NCBI GenBank assembly: GCA_019614645.1
Contig: JABWDB010000001.1
Coordinates: forward strand, 6,843,501-6,907,500
DNA from: Stratiolaelaps scimitus
Lineage: Eukaryota; Arthropoda; Arachnida; Mesostigmata; Laelapidae
Reading direction: 5' to 3'
Length of the DNA stretch: 64,000 bases
Shown here: positions 16,641 to 48,670 of the stretch, piece after piece
How the letters are laid out: every line of letters begins with the position of its first letter
Numbering within the stretch: position 1 is the first letter of the stretch
Notes under the pieces: generated by a model
Seen by the model: the letters and a program-made list of their open reading frames with translations, nothing else
The model's database searches: none
What the model was told of the DNA's origin: nothing
Made by a program: the position numbers and the translations under genes

Positions 16641-16713
16641 AGCTCGTGTGGACGACCGGCAATAAATATTTACTATTTTCTACTATTGCTCTGTTATCAT
16701 CGTCTAGTAATTA

Positions 16714-19700
16714 ATGATGGCCGTCACGGTAACGATCGTCCATTTCAATGACTGCTACAACGTGGAACCACAGAATACCGAGCCGGTGGGTGGCGCGGCC
16801 CGTTTCTGTACGGCAATTAAGTCGTTGTGGCCACTTAATCCATTGGTGTTATTCAGCGGCGATGTTTTGGCTCCGTCGATTATGAGTACGTTCACGAAGG
16901 GCGACCAGATGGCTCCTGTCCTCAACAGCATTAAAACAGACTGCGCCGTCTATGGAAATCACGATTTTGGTGCGTATACAACAAACATCATTTTTTCCGA
17001 CCATCATTTTTTGCGACCACCACGAGACAGTCGTTATAGGTTGCAATCAAGGCGATGAATTAGGCTAGCATGTAACGAATACGCTTAGCATGCTTTTATT
17101 CCAGTTCGAAAAAATGAGGCGGGTCACTCTGCCGTTCTGAGACGTTCGTATTTGCTGAACAGCAAATGCTAGCGATTATATATTATATAATAAATAGTAT
17201 TTATACAGAATGAATATAGAGTCAGCATTTAAGCAATGAGGTGTCATATGCATTGTAAGAAAGTTCGTATTTGTTTACTTACTGTCCTGCGTATTCGTAT
17301 TGTTTCGGTTCGCCAGATTTCGGCGTGGATAACCTGATCGACTTCAAGGACAAGTGTACATTTCCATGGCTGATAAGTAATGTTATCGACAACGAAACCC
17401 ACAAGCTGTTGGCGAGTGGTCACGAGTTTGTCATCCTCGAACGCAACAACAAGAAGGTGAGCTCGAAGAGAGGACAAACACCCGAAATCGAACCCGATAA
17501 ACTGGTTGCTCATAATAACGTACGATTATAAAGTCAAATTGTATAGTAAATCGAACCGAACGTCACAGTCGACCGTCGACTCGTTGAATTGTATCTTGAA
17601 CTGTGCAAATCTATGCAGCTGTTACACGCCAAGTATGGTTCATTGTCACGCCGATATCAGTCATTCATTAACGCATACAATAACGTTGTACACATGTGCT
17701 TTTGATACGAGTTTGCGAGAACACTCTATTGGGCAATATTCTTTCTCGCCTCACCGCGCCGACTGGCTATTTCTCTTCATATGCGTGTGTGTGTGTGTGT
17801 TGTTGAATCTGTCTTCCGTAAATTCCCTGGTTCTGGATGAATCTCAGTCACGGAGTAGTACGTTGAACCATGCTGCGGTAGGATGCAACGTTGCAATTAC
17901 GTAGCTCATCATTATCATCATCATCGTTAATGGGTAGATATTTATTGCGCTGTTCAAGTTGTCTGGTCCGTTCCCGCATCTCTGCGTTGTCAAATATCTC
18001 TGCTAATGACAGTGCTTTAGATCGGATAGGAGATAGGCTACTCTTGTTTGTGTCATCATTGAATCGTTGTTTTTTTTTTTTTGTTATTGTTGTAGTTGCG
18101 AGTCGACACTTCGCTAACTTCATGCGTTGATCGGGAATAGATATTGCTCTATTGATATTATGATTATTATTACTGCGACAGGGGATGTTGATGGTAGCCA
18201 ATGATGCGTGAAGATGACAAGTCAAACGAATGGAAACTTTTTGTATCGATTTCGTTGGTAATCTTCTTTTGTTGCTCGATGACTTCTTCGTGTTATGTAG
18301 CTAAAAATCATTTCTGGCTCATAATTTTTCTCTCGTATCGAGTTCTTTTTCATACCCCATCATTAAATGGACTTAATAATAGTCTGATTACATGTCTTCA
18401 CTCAATTTTGGCCAATTTCCGAACGACCGGTAGTGGTAGTAGCATGACTGATCATTCCCAGTAAAACCCAAGCATATTCGACGAATCATCTTCATCGAGC
18501 TATTATAATAATATCTCAATCACAACCATGAGCAAGACGACAATGAAAGACGATGCAACAAATACTAGCCGGAACATGCGTTGATTCATATAATGTGTTA
18601 TATATATATATATATATATATATTAGGGGTTCAATTTATTATTCATTCAATTTATATTCAAATTTTAAGGGTTCAAAAAAGATAGAAGCCATTGTTATAT
18701 ACGTGTCCGTGGCTGATTTTAAGCGTTGTCTTCTATTGCTTCTTTGTGTTGCTGCTTTCAGATTGGCATTATCGGTCTCGTAGAAGAAGAGTGGTTGGCC
18801 ACGCTGGCCACGATCGACAGTGAGCAAGTAGAATTTCGAGATTTCGTCGCTGAAGGTCGCCGGTTAGCTCAACTCCTAAAAGGGCCTCATCATGGATGTG
18901 ACTACGTGATCGCCCTTACACACATGCGATTTCCCAACGATTGCCGTCTGGCAGAGAACGTCGATGAGGTGGATCTGATTCTCGGCGGACATGATCATGT
19001 CTATGAAGTGAAACAAAGAGGAGGTAAAAAAACACGATCTATTATTAATGGACATTTGGCTTCATTCTGTATATTCTAACGTACGGAACTCCCTTAATCT
19101 GCTCATATATATATATATATATATATATGGGCAAATTAAGAGGGTTCCGTACGTTGGAATATATATATATATATATATTTATTTATAATGTATCACCTAT
19201 ATTCGTTTTCATGTAAGATCAAAGAAATACTCATCTGAGAGTATTTATTGTGTATATTTTAGTTTGCACTGTTTGTTTCATCAAAAAATTCGCCGAAATA
19301 CAAGAGATGTACAAATAACTTGGGCTAGTTTCATCATTCGTCGTGGGCTTGAGCATTTGTCTAATTCGGATGGTTAATCAGCGATGATGATGATCACCAA
19401 TTTACACCTGCTTCAGAAGCCTTCCCCTGGAACGTCCATGTTCACTCGATTACGGCAGATGTTTGTTTCCAGGAGTGATTAAATATGGGATGGCATTGTA
19501 TATACTTTTGCTTGCAGGGAAGCATATCGTAAAATCTGGAACAGACTTTCGGCAGTTCTCTAAGATTACTTTGACATTCAAAGCTGACGAGGGACCAATC
19601 GATGTTGATATTGAGGAGATGAATGTTACATCTAAATACGAAGAAGATAAAGATCTCGTGGAAGAGCTCAAAAAATATGACGACGTGGTTCAAGGTAAGA

Positions 19701-22700
19701 GACGGAGAGAGGGAGAGAGAGAGAGAGGGAGGGACGCCATTCAGCGCGATTACCTATGTGTAATTTATACTAAGTCTAATAATCATTTATCTACAATTTA
19801 TGATAATGTTTATCTCAGTGAATGTGTCACTCAGTAATTGACAGAAACTGAAACAGGACATTGCAATGGTTGCTCAATTTAATGATCGTTTGCCTCTAAT
19901 CGATGGACAGGAAAAATGGACGAAGTTCTGGGTCATTTCTCGGTAGAACTCGATGGCCGCTTTAGCTCGATTCGGACGTCCGAGACGAACTTGGGAAACT
20001 TCATTACGGATGTGATGCTGGCTGCGACGCACTCCGACCTCGCATTACTGAACTCAGGCACTCTTCGCTCAGATCGAGTGCACCCGAAAGGCGCTTTCAC
20101 GATGCGTGACTTGGTAAGCAAGTAATTCAGCAAGCACAAGTCAACCGCCGCACGTATGGCACGGTGTACGAATGCGACAGACGGATATGTTAAGAGATCG
20201 ATTTAATATTGTTTATTTAGACTCGCTCAGGTTTCTTGGACACAGCGATATCAAACGTCTAATGCCTATCCTGCATATTCGGTATATCGAGAGAGGTATT
20301 TTCGCGAAATTTACACAGAAATCGAGCGATGTACCGACACATTCAGCTATTTGTGTAGTCTTGAATTTTTATACTAAACCTTTTATTTATCTAGTGTTAA
20401 ACGACCACTCACATTTAATTCACCAGCACACATAGGACAGTTTGAAATCTTTACTCAGCATCATACCGCTTCGAGCCTGTCACTGTTACACGAGAATACA
20501 GAAGTGTCGCGATTATCACAGATGTGTACATGAACAACACTAAACGAAACCCGAGAAAAATCGTTCTACAGTTTGTAGTCAACATGTAGGGTGCACGGGT
20601 GTGACCCCACGGTTGCACCTCTGCATTTAAGGGGTCCGTCTTTTGACGCAACGTCGAAAGGAGTTCCGTGGACATAAAATGTTTCAGGCTGTGGGTCTGC
20701 CCGAAAAACATGCTTAGGGTGAGCAGACAAAAGGCATGAGTTGATCTGAATAGGTAAGATAGCATCGTATATTCCTGACAACGTGAATCGTTACAATGGG
20801 GAATATTCCTTTGGGAAGATATACTCAACACTACGTTATATGTCGTGCTGCCTTTCTTTCAGGTGACGGTTCTACCAATGATGGACAGTCTAATGGTTTT
20901 AGAGGTTTCGGGAGAGCAAATTGTAGGAGCACTTGAAAATGGTGTGAGCCAATATCCGAAGCTCGAAGGACGATTTCCACAGGTAATGCGTACCAGAATA
21001 AACCATTCCTCATGTCCCTTCTTTAATATTTGTGAACACAACTCCGCTTTATTGGAGTTACCTTGCGGTAACATAACATAACATGACATTTTCGGTTTAT
21101 TTCCGGAACGGCAATTTTACAATGCTTAAGTTCTCGATTAAAAATATAGGGTAAAAGTAAGAGGGGGGGGGTAAATAGGGTAGTCTCACTTTAAATAAGA
21201 AATCGTCGAACACTTTAATAAAGGCCAATGGAATGACGGAAAAGACTGTAGCCGATTTTCAGCTTACACCGTATAATCCTTCAAATCGAATCGCAATGCT
21301 GCAGGTATTCCCGGCATCATTGAATTTCCAAGTTATTTTCGGTTGCATTTAGTCAGTTGAATCTGACGGTGTCCTCTAAATCCTCTAAATTAAATTAACA
21401 CATTTTTTAAATGTTGAAATCATAAGCTGATGTGAGTTCCGCTCTGTATCTCGCCATCAGGTATCTGGGGTTTCGTTCGCGTTCGATCCCCGAAAACCGG
21501 CTGGCAAACGAATTAATCCTGAGCACGTGAAAATTGGTGACGAGATGCTCGATCTGAGCCAAAAGTATCGGCTTGTCACGAAAATGTACCTTTATATGGG
21601 CAAGGATGGTTACGATATACTGAAAAACTCGCCTATACTGGTAAGTGAAGAGAAGGTTATCTTCTCCTTTTTTTTCATGGACACTAATACGGCCCAACTC
21701 CCGATACCCTCGCAATAGGTCATATTGCCTGTGACGCGATGGGACCAATTACGGGTAGGAACCGAAGTAATCCTTAAGCTGGTCAAGCCTAACTGAGCTG
21801 TAAGGCTTGTTATTAAGAATTTGAATCATTTGATAAAGTCCCAGCGGACTTCCACCTATTCAGGTGGTCGGCTGTGAATTCTGGCGCCCGATCCACCCGG
21901 CCACCGGGGCAGTATCGATACTTTTAACTTCAAAAACTTAACGAAATCAATTCTATTATTCGTTACGCTGTTTGCACGTAACAATCAATCGACCAACAAA
22001 TTGCTTTGGTGCACTCTAGCCAATGAAACATTCTACCGTTGTGTTATCGCTTCTCGAGCAGGGGAAACCGAACAAACTGACCAAGTTATCCTATCCTACA
22101 AAATGAACTGTCTTTTACTGGACAGAGCCGGATAACAATAACTTTACGCTGTCATTTTTCTCTGGTAATTGTTTCAGATGGGTGACGACGAATCGCCGGA
22201 GTTGTGCACGGCCGTCCAGAACCATTTCCAAGCGATCAAGATGCTCACGGGAGCTCAGGATCACCCGCACACACACCACAGACAAAGTCTTGTCGCTCTC
22301 TCAAGGAGGTCCGTAGCGCTTGTTTAAATCTAGTGTCCATGGGGACACCACAAAGTGCGATCTAACCAATAATGTAATGCCCTAATGTTACTATACACTG
22401 AATGTATAAAAGATGTATACTTGGCACGTTTGTAGCAGTATATGAATATAGCATTCATATAAGGCAATAATAACTACGTTATAAGCTCACTCTGTCCCTG
22501 TTTTGACTTGGAACAGGACCGATCCATTGCTTGATATTGTCACAAGAGTAGCCTTCCCACAAAGTTTCGCGTGGTACTTTCAAAATAAGATTACTTCTTA
22601 CGTATCTGGGAAACATTAAATTTCGAGCGTTCGTTGGCCGAGATTGGTTTCGCCAGCTGGCATCATTGACGTTGAAATAAACTCTCCGATACAAGAAATC

Positions 22701-36806: not shown

Positions 36807-38331
36807 TGTGCATAGATCCTGTTATTGCATCATGATGGTGTATTTATATATCACATTGCACAAGTTAGCGATATATATATATATACATACATATATATAT
36901 ATATATATTAAGCAAAATTAATATTAAAAAAGGTGCAGTTAGTAGGTCGGTTCTGTTTTACTGTGCACCGCGATTCGAGCACTAAGAACATTTTGCGTCT
37001 CTGGCTACATCTGCTGTCAAAAGCGTGTTACCGCTGTCACGTAGTCAAGCGCATAAGTTTCTTTGAGCAAACGCATTCAGAGACCTCCGGCTGCGAAAGG
37101 TTCACTATATTATGTTGTCCCGTGATGACGCGAACTGGTTGCCACGCAGAGACGAGCGTAATGACTCTTGATGAATGAACGTACCTCGATCTCTACAAAT
37201 GTTCAACTGAGTCTCAATCCTAGTATTTATCTAATGGCAAATATAGAACTATGTCTTTTACTTTGCACAAGGAAATATTATAGCATACAGTGGAGTATTT
37301 CTTTCCGTTCAACTTTTCTAAGATGCCGTCGGTGGACTTGTGCTGCGCTAATTATCGTTATGATTATGAAACAACGTCATTGTCCATGAAAGTTAGTGAT
37401 AGCCTCATTCTGGAATCGCCCACTGAAATTGGATGGAGACGGATGACCAGATGGTCTCTTATACCATGAGAGCTGGATAGTTAAATTATGATCCACTTGA
37501 CTAGATAATTGATTAATTAGTAATGACATTCATCTTTCGGAGTCTAATCTGATATATGGTAGTGTGATGATTTTTCGTTCATTTTACGTTCGAAGCTGTA
37601 TATTAAATATGGATGTATGTGACTTGTAATATAGTTGATCAAAAATAATATGGTGATTAATCTCATCATCACTCCATACTCGATATTCTGGTTGGTGGTA
37701 AGTTGATTGCAAATTAAAAGGAGCGAGCAGGTATCAAGCAGCATCATGCATTCACATCTCCCCCCCCCAAAAAGGTATCAAGCAAGTCTCGAATAATCAT
37801 TGCAGTGATCAACTCGACTAGAGAATAATGAAGGAAGCTTATTATGTTTCGGGTCGTTCTTTCGCCAATCCAGTAGTGCACTGGGCAAGGGACGACTCAT
37901 CGAGTATTAAAATTTCATATTGAGGTTTATTGACAGAGCTGCAATCTCACAAACACTTTCATTTTCGTTAAATGTTAAAGAAATAAAGTAAACGTTTGAA
38001 TTGTGTCGTAATTGTGTAAGAATTCAGAGAAAAAAAATCAGTGAATAATTCAGACCGCGAGAACTTTTGAAACTCGCACAGGAATTTTTTGTTGAGCAGA
38101 ATGAGCGGATCTCGTGAGAAAACGAGTCCCAGACAGCCGACAGGCGATAAACGAGGCAATAGCGGCTAGTTTCTTTAACGGCATTGTGGCACCACGAGTA
38201 TCATAGGACCTGGTATTAATTTTGTTTGCCCGAATTTCATATAGAAATTGGGCCAGATCATTTCTTTCCGTAGTCTGACCAGTCATCCTCGACTTCATGT
38301 TCTCACCGTGCTGCTCGTTCTCTGATTACAG
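35872..38331. other. no confident gene; likely includes intron or 5' region of the receptor gene
   Basis: A minus-strand frame at 36281-35889 (130 codons) and an overlapping plus-strand frame at 35872-36213 are both open, which suggests composition rather than coding. The stretch up to the acceptor at 38331 should contain or lead to the missing N-terminal exon of the receptor, but I could not pick an ATG exon with confidence. Confidence 0.35.
36752..36804. repeat. (TA)n microsatellite, 53 bp
   Basis: The longest uninterrupted TA run in the window. A second, interrupted run lies at 36870-36910. Tyr/Ile-repeat frames over it are artefacts. Confidence 0.95.
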
Positions 38332-39363
38332 ATTTCTACTACTTCGACAGCTTCGCCTCTCACAGCCGTTGGAACAGTTAATCCAGACGTAGCAGCCACA
38401 GATCCTCGCGACGAGGTCATCGCTCGCGTTCGCGTTGCTGTCCTAGGTCTCGCACTGTTCTCCACGTTGGCCGGCAACATCGTCGTGTTCGTGCTGGTCC
38501 TTCAGAGTCGGCCAAAGTCAGCTCATCTCTCACGAATGTACTACTTCTTGCTGCATGTGTCAATTGCCGACATCCTTGTCGGCCTACTAAATATCTCGCC
38601 ACAACTTGTGTGGGACCTCTACTTCAGGTTTCCGTTCGGCAATCTCGCCTGTAAGGTCGTCAAATTCATGCAGGTGTTTGTACTCTATCTTTCCACGTAC
38701 GTGCTAGCGGGAATGGCCGTTGATCGATACCTCGTCATCCAGTCAGGTGTGAACAGGCCGATATTTGTCGTCAGGACAATTCTGACAACAAGCTGGCTGT
38801 TCGCGGCCTTTTTCGCCTTGCCACAACTGTTCATCTTCTCGCGCCAGCAGCTGCCCAATGGGGTACACGATTGTTGGGCGACTTTCGAGCCACCGATAAC
38901 CAGTTTCCGCTACGTTCTTTTCTTCGTGACGGCGATCCTCTTTGTTCCGGTATCGGTGATGGCGTTCTGTTACACCTATCTCTGTTGGGCCATCTCGAAA
39001 AGGTCACTAAGTGATGCGAAATTAAAGACCGTTCGAATGACAATGGTGATGGTGGTAGTATTCGTGCTTTGCTGGACGCCGTTTTGCTGCGCCCAGCTCT
39101 ATCTCGAGTCCACGGGACAGGTTCCCTCGACGTTTATCACACTTTGCCTGCTCGTACCGAATTTGAACTCGTGCGCCAATCCGTGGGTGTGCTTAACATT
39201 CAGCACGAGCCTGCGCCGAAGACTCTTAGACTCCATACCATTTTGGAGTCTCTGTGAGCGTCTCGCGGCACACCGCACGAAGCACGTAATCACCGTATCC
39301 AACCTTCAATATCGGGCGCCAATTCACTCGAAGAGGCAAATCCGTGCGTATCGGGTTGCGTGA
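38332..39363 (+). CDS. vasopressin/oxytocin (inotocin)-type G-protein-coupled receptor, main 3' exon
   Basis: The exon opens after tctgattacag and ends in TGA, giving 343 residues with all seven transmembrane segments. Numbering from the exon start: N49 in TM1 (AGN), D80 in TM2, C107 at the start of TM3, DRY at 131-133, DCWATF at 180-185 (the extracellular loop 2 signature of this receptor family, pairing with C107), CWTP at 247-250 in TM6, and LNSCANPW at 279-285 in TM7. The receptor should couple an oxytocin/vasopressin-like peptide to G proteins at the cell surface. An in-frame TGA just upstream of the acceptor shows that the start codon lies in an earlier exon. Residue 287, normally the Tyr of NPxxY, is Cys (NPWVC). 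There is no intron between TM6 and TM7, unlike vertebrate vasopressin receptors. The TTG at 38467 is not a start. Confidence 0.9.
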   Translation: MSTTSTASPLTAVGTVNPDVAATDPRDEVIARVRVAVLGLALFSTLAGNIVVFVLVLQSRPKSAHLSRMYYFLLHVSIADILVGLLNISPQLVWDLYFRFPFGNLACKVVKFMQVFVLYLSTYVLAGMAVDRYLVIQSGVNRPIFVVRTILTTSWLFAAFFALPQLFIFSRQQLPNGVHDCWATFEPPITSFRYVLFFVTAILFVPVSVMAFCYTYLCWAISKRSLSDAKLKTVRMTMVMVVVFVLCWTPFCCAQLYLESTGQVPSTFITLCLLVPNLNSCANPWVCLTFSTSLRRRLLDSIPFWSLCERLAAHRTKHVITVSNLQYRAPIHSKRQIRAYRVA

Positions 39364-39945: not shown

Positions 39946-42036
39946 CAACAATGAAAAAGTGCGCCTTGTATAAACGGATAAAGCCAAAGTCAATTTCGGT
40001 TTCTTTTCTGAGCTGTCTCAGAGCTTGTTTCTAGTACTGAGTTTACAAAGACCGAAGATGTTGATTACATTGTACTATTCTCCCATATTTGTAAGAGGAA
40101 GTCATATCATATTTTAGAGAACAGAGACAATTTAATATTTATTCAAACATACAGAGAGAGAGAGAGAGAATAGTTCTCTACTGTCGCTGCGATGAAACCT
40201 CTGTTTCCCTCCACCCTCGACAATAGCAAAGGGCCGAGCACCGATCCGGCCTACCAGACTGCTCTATCGGTCTCACCCCTGGAAAAGGCATAGCCCACAC
40301 AATGGAACTATTCAATGTCGGTGGTTAAACGCTGTTTTCAAATGTAGAGAAGATAAAATGATTGTGTAGGTGAAGGGCGAGACTAGCAATCAGAATATCT
40401 CTATGGGTACATGGTAGAGAACCCATCCGAAATTTGCAGAAAAGCTCAGACATTTTAAACGCTGTAGCCGCCGTCCTATTTGCTCGAACGACGATAATAC
40501 ATAGGTGTGTTCGTGTTTTCATTTTGACTCTGACGTCTACAAATTAACACCTCCCTCCATGTTGAAATATAGTCCTCGTAGTTAAATGAGGCCACCGGGA
40601 GGTAACTGGATGTCTCGAAATCGGCGAATATCTATAGAGTATTGAGGAAGACATCCACTATTTTGGGCAATGATTTTCGGTTTGAAATGTAGTCATCTGT
40701 TTACGGATGTCGTCCGCAGTGACATCTCACGTTTCCGATATATAATCTAACCTGCTCGCCCGTATTTTAGCGCAAACGTTTGCACGCAAATAAAATACTG
40801 TAAATACTACACATTTGCATATGCGATACTATCGAAATCAAACACAATATCTGAGGTCAAATGTACGTGAACACACAAGCAATGTATGAGGGAAAATATC
40901 AAATATATGTTTGAACTATGAAATGTGAAGAAACAAATTTTACTCAAACGAAACAGCGAAATCGTTTCCCAATTATGTATCAATTAAACTGTTCTGAATG
41001 GATGGTGGATAGTTTTTTAATACAACATTGATGTAAATAAAATGAACGTTGTCTGCGAAATTCTGCTTCGTGTTTTGATCCACGCACATATTTTCTTTGT
41101 ATACTGGGTTTTCTACTGACGGGTGCGGTTTCTCAAATGTAGGTGATCTTGTGACATCAATAGTAGCATACATTCAGGCGGCCGTAGGCGGCCGGACCCG
41201 ATTCGATAATCGACGACCTTTTAGCAGGAACTAGTAGTTCTATCCGTAAGTGGTAGTGACATGCTGGAACGGGTCGTCGGCCCCACAGGTCTCAGACTCC
41301 GGAGGACCTGATCTTTCGAACACGAAACGAACGGGCCCTTTGACCGCGTATGCGCCCTAGGGTAAAGGTAAGATAAAGGCTTTATTAGTTTATTAACCCC
41401 GTGAAGGAATGCGCTAAGCGATACCGGGGAGGCGGGTGCTGTTCAACATCGTCAACAGCTCGAGAAGTGTAACGACAGTTTATGGAGAAATTAACTGTCC
41501 CTCCGACGATGGTGTTCAATCGATTCGTTAATCTACTGATTATCAGTAATGATCTACGCAGATGTTCGATTTGGTCGAGGTATTTTGGCGTCATTATTAT
41601 AGTAGAGCAGTGTACCAGTATCGATTTCCCGGGGAGCCGTCGACTGCTGACAGCAACGATGTCCGCTGTCACTACTGGGGGTACGATCAGGATAATAACA
41701 ACATGGGATAGCATAGTTCAGCCACGTCGTCGTGAGAATCTCACGCGCTGGCATGAAGTTGCACCTCGGACTACCGAGCGCTCATGAGTAAGGTACACAA
41801 GAGTCATAGTTCTGGATCTTTCAGAACCATCCCAGGCTTGCCTACCATCAGGCATCGGATGCACGCTGGCCAATGTCGCGATCGCCCATCACGATGCAGT
41901 GATGCAGTCCAATCCTTGGGTTTTCAACGCCCAATTCCAAATTAACCCACGCACGTCCGGGTTGTGTTCTATTAACTGCGCCGTGATGAACAACAGTGAG
42001 CTCGCAACAAGTAGCTGACGGCAACACGCTTGGAGA
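39521..42036. other. no confident gene; repeats and 5' flank of the membrane-protein gene
   Basis: An ATT/TAA-rich stretch lies at 39840-39950 and a (GA)n run at 40151-40169. Frames at 41385-41787 are open on both strands beside a retroelement tail. 41880-42036 is probably 5' UTR or promoter of the gene that follows. Confidence 0.4.
41360..41396 (-). mobile_element. non-LTR retroelement 3' tail (minus orientation)
   Basis: GGTAAAGGTAAGATAAAGG followed by CTTTATTAGTTTATTAA. Read on the minus strand, this is an AATAAA-bearing end followed by TTTACC-type repeats, the usual form of a LINE 3' end. A near-identical tail lies at 47788-47818. Minus-strand frames at 41385-41754 may be the attached, decayed 3' body. 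Confidence 0.45.
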
Positions 42037-43356
42037 ATGCCAACACTGAGGTCGACAGGCCACAGCTCATGGTCAACGTCTCCGATTCTGGCAGCCGGAG
42101 CAGCATTTCTGTTCTTGCCGAATGTTGTGGCGGTGGATATAACCCGGCGTGTGGGAACTGAACGATGGGAGGTGGACGGATTCATCGAAGGCAACGCTTC
42201 GCTCGTGCTAGGCTTTGCATGTCGAACAGGTCTTCCAGCAAAGATAAGTGATGATATGCCTGAAGATTACTGCAATGGTATCAATGGAACATGCATTCGG
42301 GGCGTGTGCCTGTGCAGGCGCGGCTACTATCAGGCGTCGAGCGACAGCTGCAAGCCAGGTGTGCCTAGTGCTAGATTTTTGCCGCATACATCACACTCTC
42401 ATCGACGACCGACAATCCTTAATCAATCAATCAATCATACTTGGCCCTTTGTCGGCCACGCTGTAACAAGCAGTTGAAAAGTTGCCAAGGCTGCTTAGTC
42501 TCGATCTGAACTGATACACTCTCCATCTATTTCTGTCTCTCGAATTTTCAGTGAAGTCGGGCATTCTTCAGATGTTACTGTCAGTGCTGTCCTGGTTGCC
42601 CATATTGTATCTTCTCATAGTGTTGGTTGCAGCCATGTACGATGCGTTTGTGCACGGCGTATTCACTATTATGGAACGCGACACGGACGGCGCTGTCCTC
42701 GAAGCTAGCTCAAAGCCGATGAGTCCAGCAGCGCCGAATGAGCCGGTAGTATTAAACCAGTGCCCATGAACAGTTTAAACATAATGTCGTATCGTGCCGA
42801 ACTATCGTACGTGTCCAGCGGTCGCCACACAAGCAATCCTGCTACTTGCACAGTAATTCACAGAGTAGAAGTTGATTTTTGGGCTATCCCTGTGTAGCCT
42901 TGCTTCAAATGCAGGAGAGACGAGCTATTGAGTCTGTGTTAGACCAGGTGTATATATTACTCAGCGTTCTCGCCCTTCTTTTTTACGTTATTTGAACGGT
43001 TGACAATGGTGGACTCGGGATGCAAGTAGCCTAATGCTAGACTTGTGTACCCATCGTGAAAGTGATATGGGGACAATACCCCTCCATATTGTACTCCCAT
43101 AGGCCCCTTGACCATATAGACTTACACCAGATAATGCTCACATCACGTATCAACGTCACAGCTGACGCTGACTCGCTGCGTGACTAATTTCTCATTATCG
43201 TTATGACTATTTGATCTGTAGTCTGTTACAGAGTGTGGCACACGTCATCGCCGGCACCGGGGTGCAGTGCGTGTGGAGAAAATTGCTGAAGGTGTCGAAT
43301 ACGATTGGGCTTACGATAGCGCTTTGGACCAAGGCGAGGATGATGTCGATATGTGA
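42037..43356 (+). CDS. single-pass membrane protein with cysteine module, tandem paralogue 1
   Basis: Exons 42037-42358 (phase 1 end, CCAG|gtgtgc), 42552-42745 (donor GCCG|gtagta) and 43222-43356 (acceptor atctgtag; stop TGA) give 216 residues. Order: a hydrophobic leader ending near FLPNVVAVD, an ectodomain with WEVDGFIEGNAS, a module DYCNGINGTCIRGVCLCRRG with two possible N-glycosylation sites, one transmembrane segment (LSWLPILYLLIVLVAAMY), the juxtamembrane motif MERDTDGAVLEA, and an acidic tail with GVEYDWAYDSAL. The orientation is probably type I (signal peptide, tail inside the cell). The last exon is read in a frame other than the longest one there; the paralogue at 44.8-47.6 kb supports this choice. 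If intron 2 is retained, translation stops at 42769. The cysteine pattern resembles an EB or half-EGF module. I do not know the family. Confidence 0.75.
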
Positions 43357-43434
43357 CAGGCCTGCGTGCGATTACTGTAAATACTGCCGACAAGCTCCGC
43401 CTGCGTCTCTCGGTTGTCCGAGCGGGAATCGATG

Positions 43435-43513
43435 ACTTTTTGTTTGGTTGTTGATTGCGGCAACTTTTTGTTTGGTTGTTGATTGCGGCAACTTTTTGTT
43501 TGGTTGTTGATTT
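43435..43513. repeat. 28-bp tandem repeat, three copies
   Basis: Three nearly identical units containing TTTTTGTTTGGTTGTTGATT lie between the stop codon and the poly(A) signal of paralogue 1, so in its 3' UTR. Confidence 0.9.
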
Positions 43514-43627
43514 TGTAGATGTCTGTAGAATCCAATACGGGAAGTGTATGTATATATGTATGTATTATAAAAATAGCTAATCTGCTGAGAATTGATTTAC
43601 TGCTGCTACACAAAAAAATTGTCGCTG

Positions 43628-43633
43628 AATAAA
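43628..43633 (+). promoter_or_regulatory. poly(A) signal AATAAA of paralogue 1
   Basis: A canonical hexamer about 270 bases after the stop codon and past the 28-bp tandem repeat. Confidence 0.6.
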
Positions 43634-44805
43634 TAGATGCACATAATTGGTATCTCGACATTTGGCCGGCCTCTCAAGTGTTCAATCTGCGATGCAGAGA
43701 AAATACTTGGTATCTATTTTCGTCTCCTTGTCAGTATCATCATATGCTCAACCGCGATATCGCACCCGCGCCTAGTCTACTGAGAGAGCGCTAAGTTTAA
43801 TTGGTAAGCAAAGTCGTAGTATTGCAATACGAGTTCGCAGTCACACTTACTGAGCTCACGATTATGTTAATTATTATCTCAATATGTTCGTATACCTGAA
43901 TGTCTCTCAGGACTAGGATCAAGATGCTTCGGCTCCTTCTTGCCTAAAATATTAAACACAAGTGCGCCATCAATCCAGTGAGAGTTCTAGGATTGTATCT
44001 CTAAGTAGACATTATCAACAAGCTGTTCTCTACTTCAACAGCGTTTGGTGCGCAACTACTGAGAATTAAGTGAAGGCACTAGATACTGTCGGTTAATGGC
44101 CACACATCATCGTTGTGGCCGATGTAGTAGAGGTCACAATGCACGACACCTGATGGGATAACACTACAACATGTATTTTGAATGCACACCCAAAAGCTGT
44201 TACGGCTGTTACGCTACAATCGTCGGGCATGCATTGTCCACGTGCGTGTACACGTACGATCAGTAGGAGCAGATTTCGCAATCACTAGGTGCTTGTGCAG
44301 TGCTCCGATTTTAAGGTTCTTATCAAGTTTGCGGGTCTAAAAAGAATGCTGTCAAGCCAAGTTAGGGTAACTTTAATTTTAAAGGATGCCCGGGCCGTCC
44401 TATGCGGCCTCGGCCAGGGGTTTCTCATTGCAGCCAGTCGACTTCGCCATCTGCTGCGGAGTCGATACGAAAATGAAGCAATTCAGTTGATAGAAAGTTT
44501 TACATAGAGTTTTACAAAGTCATACATAGACGAGAAAGGACAACTCGTTCGATGGCAGGAGAGCGGGTAGCTCGTTCGTAGATGGATGTTGAAATTTCCT
44601 CCGGCTCTCAGAGGTATTTACCGCAAGACGAAAATCTGTTGAATACCCTGTCTCCAAAATATACCCTGATACGTCCACCTCATTAAGTGAGCAGGGTTTT
44701 CAGACTGCTTTCGTTCACGGCGATTCTGCGATGTGGCAATGACTATGAAGGCAGCGCGACGGCCGGCAAGAACCTCGGCGAACCTCGTCATCCGAACTCT
44801 GTACG
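43634..44805. other. intergenic spacer between the two paralogues
   Basis: No gene seen. It contains the promoter and 5' UTR of paralogue 2, without a clear TATA box. Short frames on both strands look random. Confidence 0.5.
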
Positions 44806-47608
44806 ATGCGAACGCTAAAGCCAACCGTGCGCGGCGGTGCATACTCGAGCATTGAATTGCTTCTCGCGTTCACGATGTCACTGTTACTACCTAGCGTGAT
44901 GGGCTCAAGTGAAAGACACGTAAAACTTGAAGAACTAAGCCTCACTAAAGAACGAGCCGTCGGGACAACACGATGGGCACCAAGAGCTTTCGTTGCAGGT
45001 AATTCGACACACGTCTTGGCGTACGCGTGCGAGCTAAATTATCCCCCAAAGCTAGAGAGCTCACCCGATTCTTCAATCCCTGATTACTGTCATCTCGCTA
45101 ATGGAACGTGCGTTGTGGGGGTGTGCATCTGTAGGCGAGGATTCACACGTGTCTCGATGAAGAGCTGTCAATTCGGTAAGAATTCGATGTTATTGTGGTT
45201 TCTCGTACGAACTGAGAACGGCGGAGTGATTCAGGAGGGGTGATTTCCGTTCATAAGGTGACTTGGTATGCTGTCATAGGTCGGTTGTAGGCATTCGCGT
45301 GCGCCGTGCGAGGGAGACGTGTAGGTCCACGAGTTCGATTCCCACCGTTGCGCATTTGCATATAAAGGGGTCCGTCTTATGGAGCAATGCTGGAAGCAGT
45401 ACCGTGGACGTTAAATGTTGGCTGTGAGCCAGCCCGGAAAATCTATAGGTCGCTCTAGGTTATAACCCAGTAAGGTGCGGCGTAGTTTTTGGGTAGCTAC
45501 TAAACGTGGAACTCCCCTAACGGTTGATTTGGGGTATGTCCAGCTCCCCTCGGAGGGGTGACGACTTCTGATCCATGCTCGCTCAGTCACACGGAAATCC
45601 GCTGTCCGATTAAAAGAGACTAATTAGTCTCTCCGTGTACACGCACATGGACAATGCATGCCAGGCGATTGTAGCGTAAGGCCCGATAACGCGAACTTCT
45701 TCTCAAAATTAGCTTGGTTTTGTGGTCATCTTCATGGGCAAAGGTGGTGCCTTGCAAATGATTTGCCAGAGAACGGAAAATGAGATAATCGGTTGGAGCA
45801 AGGTGCGCCGAAAACGGCTGGGGAAAAATAACTTTCTAATCGAGGCTGCTTGGGATGGTTTTCGCGGATTTTGTAATGTGTGGGTCCGGCATTGTTGCAG
45901 CAGGATCACCTGCTCGCTATGGGGCGTTTACCCCTTCAATAGTTAGATCTACGCGTTGCAACTGGCCCATATAGACGTGCTGACCTACAGTCTGATTGTT
46001 ATCCAGCATTTCCCACTAAATCATGCCTTTCTGGTCTCAGTGAGTGAAGGTGATGCACTGCCGGCTGACGGCTGACACCGATATTTTCGGCTAATTCCCG
46101 CGTTGTTCTTCTCCAACAATGTCAAGACGCTTCCCATCAATGTTAGGCGGTTCTCTCACTAATAACATCGTCACCGTATAGAGAACAGATCTCCCTGCCT
46201 GCTTCCTCAGTCCTTTGGCCAAGGGGAAAGGCATCGAAAAGCAAGTGTCGAAAATGCAATTTTTTTTTACTTTGAAATACACCCATGTTTAGAGCCTTCC
46301 TGAAAAGAGAAATGCTCCGTATCCGTGCCGCTACTCAACTTGTAGACGAAAGGACAGAACTCTCCAGCGACTGATAGAAACACACGGTAGCCGAGAAGGG
46401 CGAACGGGAAGCAATTAGAAAACAGCCAAAACTTATGTAACAACCGAAAGTGTACATTGAAGACGTAGTTTGATCTACCATGTATGTACAGACACGCATC
46501 CCGATCACGAATCGTTCAAAAGGGTCGCACTCGCCCACATGAAGTCTCCTCACTTAGCGCTTAGTGCTTATCTGGCAAGTGTCTAAAGCCCGCGTGGGGC
46601 GCCCTTCTCAATGCATCGACCCATGTTGGCAATTCTAATTGTGCGCCGTCGTTGTCCCCTCCCCCCCCCGCAAATAATCGTTCGGGCATAATTGTTTGTT
46701 CAACTCTCTTCACGTGTCGTTGTGGCGAATACATTGCAGCATCCCTCGGAAGTGGAATACATACAATCTTGTCGACGCTCTCGTGGTCGCCGATGGCCTA
46801 CCCTTTAATGGTTTTTATCGCGATGATTTATGAAGGTTTTGTAATGTCGCTGTTCAAGATCATGCAGCGTGATACCGACGGAGCTGTCTTAGAGGCCAAG
46901 ACGTCATTACTCAAGCCCAGCCAATCGACTACTAACGAACAGGTAAGTTGGACATAGAAACTAGCAACAGTAGACAGTAGAAATAGTAAAAAGAATTACG
47001 CGTAAAAATGTCAAACGCGACGAAACGCTAGATAACATCACAATATGATGGTCCAATATTAATAAAAGCACTGTATCTTGCTCGATAGAATGGTGGCTCC
47101 TCGCAGAGAAATGTCTACAACTCAATCAATCACTGCCATTTATTGTCTGCGCCTGTGTTAAAGCTGGAGCAGGCAACGACAGGCAGTGATACTCATTTCT
47201 CTAGCACACAATGGCCAGACGCTGGGCATTTTCACTATGCTACGAGCATCGGCACGCTTAGTATGTGGCTTAACGCACATTGACACGCAGCTAAAACATC
47301 GATCCCGGAAATCAAGGCGATAAATTCAAGGCGAGCGAATGTCAAAATGATGTATAATATCAATTGCATCCAGTTGCCACGTTGAGAGAATACAGGTCTG
47401 ACTTTCCTCTATTCGTGCTTTTCATCTGTCCTGTTCCTTCCTGCACCTCCCACCCCTGGCCGGTTCTCAGGTACGTGCACCTAGCATGTGCCGCTCTAGG
47501 TCTCAGCGAGGCATTGTCGTGGAGAAGTGCGCCGAAGGTGTGGAATACGATTGGGCTTACGATAGCGCTTTAGAACAAGAAGAGTATGAAACAGACGATC
47601 AGAATTAG
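44806..47608 (+). CDS. single-pass membrane protein with cysteine module, tandem paralogue 2
   Basis: Exons 44806-45175 (TTCG|gtaaga), 46740-46942 (acceptor cattgcag, donor ACAG|gtaagt) and 47507-47608 (acceptor gtctcag; stop TAG) give 224 residues. It has the same architecture, intron positions and phases as the gene at 42.0 kb: a leader (LLLAFTMSLLLPSVMGSS), an ectodomain with an FVAGNST site, the module DYCHLANGTCVVGVCICRRG, a transmembrane segment after LSW, then MQRDTDGAVLEA and the tail GVEYDWAYDSALEQEEYETD. The ectodomains have drifted while the juxtamembrane motif and tail core are unchanged. The Tyr residues in an acidic tail could be phosphorylation or sorting signals (inference). 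Intron 1 is 1564 bp, against 193 bp in paralogue 1, and holds two transposable-element relics. Function unknown. Confidence 0.78.
45285..45450 (+). mobile_element. SINE-like repeat, copy C, most complete (intron 1 of paralogue 2)
   Basis: The copy with the clearest RNA polymerase III B box (GAGTTCGATTCCC at about 45329). It is followed by the shared core CACCGTTGCGCATTTGCATA, GGGGTCCGTCTTATGGAGCA and TACCGTGGACGTTAAATGTT. The tRNA-like 5' part starts near 45285. Confidence 0.75.
45660..46560 (-). pseudogene. mariner transposase relic (intron 1 of paralogue 2)
   Basis: On the minus strand, mariner hallmarks appear in order but in different frames: CSLYGDDVISERTA (about 46140-46190), TRELAENIGVS then VHHLHSL (about 46040-46095), YMGQLQRVDLTIEG (about 45940-45985) and LAPTDYLIFRSL (about 45770-45805). 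The last is the block after the second catalytic Asp; the usual Ser of APSD is Thr. Several stops and frame shifts lie between them, so the copy is dead. The catalytic NARPH region is not recognisable. No clear terminal repeats were identified. Confidence 0.8.
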
Positions 47609-47754
47609 CCGGCGTTTAGGTCACGCTGGCCCCGAGAATAATTTGTATCCGGATAGGGACAACGATTCGTTAGTAATTCTATTGATGTTGGTGATGACGA
47701 TCATGATGACGATGTGGTGTGCCTCCTGTCTGTGTGGGTGGACACCGCTTGATG

Positions 47755-47760
47755 AATAAA
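47755..47760 (+). promoter_or_regulatory. poly(A) signal AATAAA of paralogue 2
   Basis: A canonical hexamer about 150 bases after the stop codon. Confidence 0.6.
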
Positions 47761-47787
47761 CATTTGATGACATTTGTGATAAGTAAA

Positions 47788-48417
47788 GGGTAAAGGTAAA
47801 GCTTTATTGGTTTATTAAAGGAGCTGAAATTTCACAATGTTTAAACTCTCTTAGTCTCTCTATTATGTCACGCAGCGGAGCTCGAACTAAAGTAGCTAAA
47901 CGCTGTTTGGTGCGGTGCGGATGTGAGAAAAGTTGTCTTTTTTTACGAGGGGAGAAATGTGTTACGCACGAGCAGACACCACCGTTTATATCTGGGCCGA
48001 GCAGTGTCGGACTCGCCATAAATTAGCGGCGAGCTAAACTACCGGCGTTACCGACTAATACTCCAGGTTTTTAGTTGGTCTCAACATAGCAGCCTCTCTT
48101 AAGCTTCCCTCCATACCTCCCAGCTCTTCATTTGACAGTACGATGGGTAGGTAGGAGTGCTGGGGGTCACCTGTCGGGTTCCCCACCGCATCAGACAAGC
48201 CGTTCCCATCAACCTGCGACCCCGACACGGTTGTGGCATTGTCCTCGGCGTGACTTACTGTCGGGAGGGTGCTCACTGAGCCATACACGTCACGTCCTGT
48301 TTCTTTCCGTCTTTCTCCCTCGGCGGTTTTTGCGATGAAGGGGAATCTTAATAGGCGAATTCGAGCAAGGCGTCCCTTTTCTTCGACTTTAGCAGTGAGT
48401 CGCCGTTCCGCTGCCAA
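47788..48417 (-). mobile_element. non-LTR retroelement 3' end, tail plus possible decayed body
   Basis: The tail at 47788-47818 (GGGTAAAGGTAAAG then CTTTATTGGTTTATTAA) matches that at 41360-41396. Behind it, minus-strand frames at 48019-47804 and 48417-48055 are open. The second has 120 codons with good coding composition (for example SYLPIVLSNEELGGMEGSL) but no family motif. It could be element-derived or an independent exon. Confidence 0.4.
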
Positions 48418-48670
48418 CGGTGCGAGACTTTATTCAGAGCTAAGGTTCTTGCCGGCTCCAGTGCAGGACAGACGAGCAGCGTGTAGAAAGCATCGTCTCT
48501 TGTACCTTCAGTGGAGTGCATACAGCTCCCCGAATGGGGGACTATGTCGAAATGGAAGTCTCTATGCCCAGTTAAAACTTGGGTGATGAAGAAGTTATGT
48601 GTAAATTTGTCTACGTGAATCTGTACTATCTGTAATTGCTATTTGTGAAGTGTTATTCAAACTAATTATA

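What the first reader, a model, noticed from the sequence alone, without database searches (positions are those of the whole stretch)
42037..47608. Tandem pair of unnamed single-pass membrane proteins with an invariant tail
Two three-exon genes share intron positions and phases (1, 0), a leader, a DYCxxxNGTCxxGVCxCRRG cysteine module, a single transmembrane segment, the identical juxtamembrane string DTDGAVLEA and an identical cytoplasmic string GVEYDWAYDSAL. The ectodomains differ widely while the inner parts are frozen. That is the pattern expected of diversified receptors or ligands with one shared intracellular partner. I know no named family with this layout. The function and the topology are inference.
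Basis: partly seen in the sequence, partly recalled or inferred. Interest (0 to 1): 0.75.

Follow-up and report, generated by a model that had tools for sequence, protein, structure and literature searches.

The report
Two orphan mite membrane-protein genes
A predatory mite carries two old, neighbouring gene copies for a small, probably single-pass surface protein with an EGF-like outer module and a strongly conserved ten-residue inner motif, and the only clear relative found is an unnamed protein of a related bee mite.

Summary
The gene pair is real. G1 (42037-43356, 216 aa) and G2 (44806-47608, 236 aa, not 224) share three exons, intron phases 1 and 0, a leader, a six-cysteine EGF/EB-like module, one hydrophobic segment and the tail AEGVEYDWAYDSAL. 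The genome fits Stratiolaelaps scimitus (Mesostigmata). Each exon was found twice in the genome, both times here. In about 5.8 billion proteins the one significant relative is an unnamed Tropilaelaps mercedesae protein, which keeps EYDWAYDSAL. The juxtamembrane string is not invariant across species.

The claim of diversified ectodomains against a frozen interior is overstated. Identity is 46% (ectodomain), 46% (exon 2) and 58% (exon 3). Ectodomain dN/dS is about 0.22-0.29; only two short strings are fixed. Part of the tail identity may reflect a short gene-conversion tract (29 identical nucleotides).

Best reading: a fast-evolving family of type I EGF-like membrane proteins whose tail docks one conserved cytosolic partner, still unknown. 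A degenerate kinesin-light-chain W-acidic motif is the bold rival. Moderate interest: a real orphan family with ordinary architecture.

The parts
42037..42358 (+). G1 exon 1: leader, ectodomain and EGF/EB-like module (ends in phase 1, donor gtgtgc)
   Evidence: homologous to G2 exon 1 and to the Tropilaelaps protein P0001 (45% identity by tblastn)
42220..42351 (+). G1 six-cysteine EGF/EB-like module (C62-C105), conserved NGT sequon
   Evidence: cysteine spacing; Pfam EGF_2 E 8.2e-4, below Pfam's cut-off
42552..42745 (+). G1 exon 2: hydrophobic segment and juxtamembrane string
   Evidence: hydropathy peak 2.55 (19-residue windows starting at residues 115 and 116)
42677..42706 (+). G1 RDTDGAVLEA
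   Evidence: most synonymous sites differ from G2
43222..43356 (+). G1 exon 3: cytoplasmic tail and stop (alternative acceptor gives start 43234)
43297..43326 (+). G1 tail motif EYDWAYDSAL, invariant in the three known members
43628..43633 (+). AATAAA downstream of G1
44806..45175 (+). G2 exon 1: leader, ectodomain and EGF/EB-like module (ends in phase 1, donor gtaaga)
45028..45168 (+). G2 six-cysteine EGF/EB-like module (C75-C121)
46740..46942 (+). G2 exon 2: hydrophobic segment (hydropathy peak 1.87) and juxtamembrane string
46868..46897 (+). G2 RDTDGAVLEA
47471..47608 (+). G2 exon 3: cytoplasmic tail and stop
47543..47572 (+). G2 tail motif EYDWAYDSAL; its first 29 nt are identical to G1
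47755..47760 (+). AATAAA downstream of G2

Best explanation
G1 and G2 are an old tandem duplicate in a predatory mesostigmatan mite whose genome fits Stratiolaelaps scimitus. They encode type I single-pass membrane proteins. A leader directs the chain to the secretory pathway. Outside, a six-cysteine EGF/EB-like module with a conserved N-glycosylation sequon contacts an unknown partner. One hydrophobic segment anchors the protein. Inside, the EYDWAYDSAL motif docks one conserved cytosolic protein that links the surface protein to signalling or trafficking. Shown: the gene structures by comparison, sequence conservation, a cross-species relative and purifying selection between the copies. Inferred: topology, expression, and that the motif is a docking site. 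Unknown: the partner on either side.
For: Exon design and phases identical. Substitution pattern is that of coding sequence under purifying selection: ectodomain dN/dS 0.22, synonymous sites saturated over the whole gene. Tropilaelaps relative at E 1.7e-23 with the same leader-module-segment-tail order, six aligned cysteines and EYDWAYDSAL. Invariant run of 10, permutation p about 0.001. NGT sequon in 3 of 3 members. Each exon found twice in 426 Mb, both in this locus (3, 2 and 2 candidates scored). Outside the pair, the coding string for YDWAYD has one other match in the genome, inside a GMC oxidoreductase, about what chance gives (reversed-pattern control 1 forward, 1 reverse).
Against: No RNA reads. 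Pfam EGF_2 and EB scores lie below the curated cut-offs. Structure models are of low confidence (mean pLDDT 45.8 and 59.8). Only one other species is known. The hydrophobic stretch is about 35 residues with a Tyr-Asp/Glu/Gln inside it, and G2's peak hydropathy is only 1.87, so a second membrane pass, a membrane-lying helix or a different membrane boundary is not excluded. No known docking motif matches the tail strictly (by inspection).
Confidence: 0.5

Rival explanations
1. The tail is a degenerate kinesin-light-chain docking motif of the W-acidic kind (SKIP: TNLEWDDSAI). The proteins are membrane cargo receptors carried on kinesin-1, working like calsyntenin.
For: An acidic residue before Trp, then D-S-A-aliphatic, in an acidic C-terminal tail of a probable type I membrane protein. 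The published description and the SKIP peptide come from passages of PMC6214655, which also says that an artificial membrane protein with one calsyntenin motif recruits kinesin-1.
Against: The description given there, Trp flanked by Asp/Glu, is not met after the Trp (Ala), and DSAL lies one residue further away. The SKIP leucine at -2 is Tyr here. Pfam listed no calsyntenin family for the two proteins. The planned control, the mite's own calsyntenin tail, did not complete.
Confidence: 0.12
2. A membrane-tethered ligand or adhesion molecule in which the ectodomain does the work and the inner part only sets trafficking (sorting or endocytosis).
For: Single small cysteine module, short protein, leader and anchor. 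A Y-x-x-hydrophobic string (YDAF, YEGF, YQII) lies at the same place in 3 of 3 members (by inspection); if the membrane ends before it, it could be an endocytosis signal.
Against: The cysteine spacing (C3-x4-C4) is not that of EGF-receptor ligands (recalled). The YxxPhi-like string sits inside the hydrophobic stretch; the tail proper has no YxxPhi, NPxY or shared dileucine signal by inspection, yet it holds the longest invariant run.
Confidence: 0.25
3. A tyrosine-phosphorylated immune-type receptor: the tail's two tyrosines (EYDWAYD) are kinase sites that recruit SH2 proteins, as in Draper-like phagocytic receptors.
For: Two tyrosines in acidic context, invariant in 3 of 3 members. EGF-type modules occur in such receptors (recalled, from no call).
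Against: No ITAM (YxxL/I twice) and no NPxY; one module only; no CCxGY of Nimrod proteins (no adjacent cysteines).
Confidence: 0.08
4. The identical tails of G1 and G2 are mainly a product of gene conversion in exon 3, not of selection for one partner. (This concerns the cause of the identity and does not exclude the functional readings.)
For: 29 identical nucleotides; 10 of 12 consecutive comparable codons identical in the best stretch, against 34 of 95 overall. Exon 3 has 14 of 24 comparable codons identical against 20 of 71 in exons 1-2, Fisher p 0.013. Site patterns join G1 to G2 in exons 2-3 (15 of 24 two-way agreements) more than in exon 1 (12 of 34), Fisher p 0.06.
Against: The same string is in the Tropilaelaps protein. 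Exon 3 residues on either side of the motif are as diverged as the rest (43% and 33% identity), so a tract would have to be very short. The cysteine module is also short of synonymous saturation (dS 0.99), so the tail is not wholly exceptional. Synonymous constraint at RNA level is also possible.
Confidence: 0.2

Closest known systems
Tropilaelaps mercedesae hypothetical protein BIW11_08480 (P0001, 221 aa)
   Same: 37% identity over 75% of G2; six aligned cysteines; NGT sequon; EYDWAYDSAL tail
   Different: Longer N-terminus; the outer half of the hydrophobic segment is absent (possibly a wrong exon boundary); juxtamembrane DTDGAVLEA not kept; charged linker before the tail motif
Pfam EGF_2 (PF07974) and EB module (PF01683)
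   Same: NGTC..GVC.C..G......C pattern, listed for 3 of 3 members at E up to 10
   Different: Best scores below the curated cut-offs (EGF_2 20.1 against 22.1 bits, EB 16.6 against 24.3); 16-19 residues between cysteines 1 and 2
Calsyntenin/SKIP W-acidic adaptors
   Same: Acidic tail, Asp before Trp, DSAL after it
   Different: No acid directly after the Trp; one extra residue; no calsyntenin family listed by Pfam
Spitz/Keren/TGF-alpha type EGF-receptor ligands (recalled)
   Same: Leader, one EGF-like module, one membrane segment
   Different: Four residues between cysteines 3 and 4 instead of about ten or more (spacing of the ligands recalled)

Membership tests
Same family as Tropilaelaps BIW11_08480 | Significant similarity over most of the length with the same order of parts and the tail motif | tested here: met
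   E 1.7e-23, 75% of G2 covered, 10-residue invariant run
EGF_2 / EB module proteins | Pfam score at or above the curated cut-off | tested here: not met
   EGF_2 20.1 bits against 22.1; EB 16.6 against 24.3 (best of the members)
EGF-like module (broad sense) | Six cysteines ending C-x-C-x(8 or so)-C (recalled) | tested here: met
   spacings 16 or 19, 6, 4, 1, 11 in 3 of 3 members; disulphides and fold untested
EGF-receptor ligands (Spitz type) | About ten or more residues between cysteines 3 and 4 (recalled) | tested here: not met
   four residues in 3 of 3 members
W-acidic kinesin light chain adaptors | Trp flanked by Asp/Glu (PMC6214655, passages) | tested here: not met
   DWA in 3 of 3 members: acid before, not after
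W-acidic kinesin light chain adaptors | Binding to the KLC TPR domain | not testable with these tools
   needs a binding assay
ITAM receptors / Draper | YxxL/I twice, 6-12 apart (recalled) | tested here: not met
   by inspection: YDWA and YDSA in the tail
Nimrod family | NIM repeats with CCxGY (recalled) | tested here: not met
   no adjacent cysteines in any of the three
Type I single-pass membrane protein | Cleaved leader and one membrane segment with the C-terminus inside | tested here: inconclusive
   hydropathy fits; no topology program and no experiment; long hydrophobic stretch

The most novel reading that the evidence does not exclude
EYDWAYDSAL is a new cytosolic docking motif, perhaps a shifted W-acidic kinesin-1 signal, and G1, G2 and their Tropilaelaps relative are the founding members of a laelapid-restricted family of surface cargo receptors built around it.
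Probability: 0.12. Interest if true: 0.55.

Novelty: new variant of a known kind. Interest (0 to 1): 0.36.

Why it matters
It gives a small orphan surface-protein family of parasitic and predatory mites three aligned members, a defined six-cysteine module and a ten-residue tail motif. The motif is a ready-made bait for finding a cytosolic partner. The family evolves fast: 37-47% identity, depending on the alignment, between two mites whose neighbouring receptor gene is 75% identical. Apparent lineage restriction may therefore partly be a limit of detection.

Tried and rejected
Further copies: none beyond the pair (only the few best candidates are scored, so a very diverged copy could be missed). 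Two weak hits of the Tropilaelaps protein on contigs C4 and C11 (E 0.35 and 4.6) contain stops and show no module and were rejected. A third genomic YDWAYD lies in a GMC oxidoreductase and was rejected. P0002 (E 3.2) resembles the module region but has other residues at three of the cysteines; it is chance or decayed sequence and was not counted as a member. PDB by sequence gave nothing significant (best E 0.25, 0.071). NCBIfam: none for G2; one of the three members matched an unrelated bacterial model at E 0.12. Rfam over 41500-48500: none. Structure models were too weak for fold searches, so none was run. Papers: no hit for the tail string or for BIW11_08480. A Dermanyssus secretome paper (PMC3846644, term search only) does not use the word EGF; the Tropilaelaps genome paper (PMC5467014, passages) likewise; PMC11183080 was seen as abstract and outline only. 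Other papers were seen as listings only.

Full report
Where it is. The window lies on contig C1 (31,288,268 bases) of a 426,401,914-base genome in 145 contigs. The Stratiolaelaps scimitus assembly paper gives 426.50 Mb, 158 contigs and a longest sequence of 31.29 Mb (PMC7936031; abstract and outline, section 11). The identification is inference from these statistics; the contig counts differ. It agrees with the neighbouring receptor gene, whose best named relative is a Tropilaelaps protein at 75% identity, with Galendromus at 55%.

The genes. Spliced by hand and checked by script, G1 is 42037-42358, 42552-42745, 43222-43356 (216 aa). Both have phases 1 and 0 and GT..AG introns. G1 has an alternative in-phase acceptor giving 212 aa. 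An AATAAA follows both genes. A profile of the family against the open frames of the window finds the six exons and nothing else significant (next best E 0.43).

What is conserved. G1 and G2 agree at 100 of 215 aligned residues. By segment: ectodomain 46%, exon 2 46%, exon 3 58%, ten juxtamembrane codons 90%, 14 tail codons 100%. Nei-Gojobori counts give dN/dS 0.22 for the ectodomain, 0.29 for a narrower cut, 0.38 for the module alone and 0.33 for exon 3; over the whole gene and in exon 2 dS is saturated. This is purifying selection and an old duplication. It does not show diversifying selection, though episodic selection cannot be excluded from two sequences.

Relatives. phmmer of G2 against about 5.8 billion proteins gave 1 hit among 259 candidates: Tropilaelaps mercedesae hypothetical protein BIW11_08480, E 1.7e-23. 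A profile of the three found that protein and P0002 (E 3.2) among 5296 candidates. Candidates are limited to 0.55-1.75 times the query length and must share short words. As a control, the neighbouring receptor exon found Tropilaelaps, Galendromus, Halotydeus and several ticks among 37 hits of 6288 candidates at E <= 1e-20. The collection therefore does hold mites and ticks. Because this family is only 37-47% identical between Stratiolaelaps and Tropilaelaps (by alignment and segment) while the receptor is 75%, more distant members could be missed by a word-based search. The range seen, two mites, is a lower bound.

The tail. EYDWAYDSAL is invariant in 3 of 3 members and is the longest invariant run (10; permutation p about 0.001). 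Between G1 and G2 the DNA of the motif is also unusually alike: 29 identical nucleotides. Synonymous identity is clustered there (12 of 15 identical codons in the best stretch, 34 of 95 overall; permutation p 0.0025-0.02 over four stretch lengths chosen by me). The juxtamembrane string shows the opposite: same residues, 6 of 9 DTDGAVLEA codons changed. The cysteine module is also below saturation (dS 0.99), which weakens the contrast. A very short gene-conversion tract or RNA-level constraint would explain the tail. Site patterns lean towards conversion but do not reach significance (Fisher p 0.06). The coding string for YDWAYD occurs once elsewhere in the genome, inside a GMC oxidoreductase.

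The ectodomain. Six cysteines align in the three members, with spacings 16 or 19, 6, 4, 1, 11, and one NGT sequon. Pfam EGF_2 and EB are listed for 3 of 3 members, below cut-off. AlphaFold2 models are weak (mean pLDDT 45.8 for the G1 exon 1 product, 59.8 for the Tropilaelaps protein); short strands fall in the module, but no fold conclusion is drawn.

The membrane segment. The hydrophobic stretch is about 35 residues, with peak hydropathy 2.55 in G1 and 1.87 in G2. It holds a Tyr followed by Asp, Glu or Gln in the three members (YDAF, YEGF, YQII). Depending on where the membrane ends, this is an in-membrane polar site or a YxxPhi-like sorting signal; I cannot tell which.

Mechanism. I commit to a type I surface protein with an EGF-like outer module and a docking tail (0.5). 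A ligand or adhesion reading with a trafficking tail (0.25) and a kinesin-1 cargo-receptor reading (0.12) remain. The latter rests on a partial likeness to the W-acidic peptide TNLEWDDSAI (PMC6214655, passages). The acid after the tryptophan is absent, so membership is not claimed. The confidence given for gene conversion concerns the cause of the tail's identity between copies and does not compete with the functional readings.

Verdict. A real small family, unnamed in the collections searched, with ordinary architecture and one striking conserved motif. A new variant of a known kind.

Noticed in passing
window 38326-39360 +: Large exon of a rhodopsin-type receptor, closest to oxytocin/vasopressin-like receptors; 75% identical to a Tropilaelaps protein.
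   Followed up: partly
window about 16711-21715 +: Exons of a 5'-nucleotidase-like gene (Metallophos below cut-off in one open frame; 5_nucleotid_C above it in two).
   Followed up: partly
window 43435-43512: Perfect 28-base tandem repeat, 2.8 copies, between the G1 stop and its AATAAA.
   Followed up: no
P0002 (188 aa, protein database): Unnamed sequence resembling the G2 module (CHLANG...GFTHVSSKKC) but with other residues at three of the cysteines; possibly a decayed relative or chance.
   Followed up: partly
P0001, about residues 133-155: The Tropilaelaps model lacks the outer half of the hydrophobic segment; its exon 2 start may be mis-annotated.
   Followed up: no
window 42632-42670 and 46841-46867 (inner end of the hydrophobic stretch): Y-x-x-hydrophobic string (YDAF, YEGF; YQII in the Tropilaelaps protein) at the same place in the three members.
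   Followed up: no
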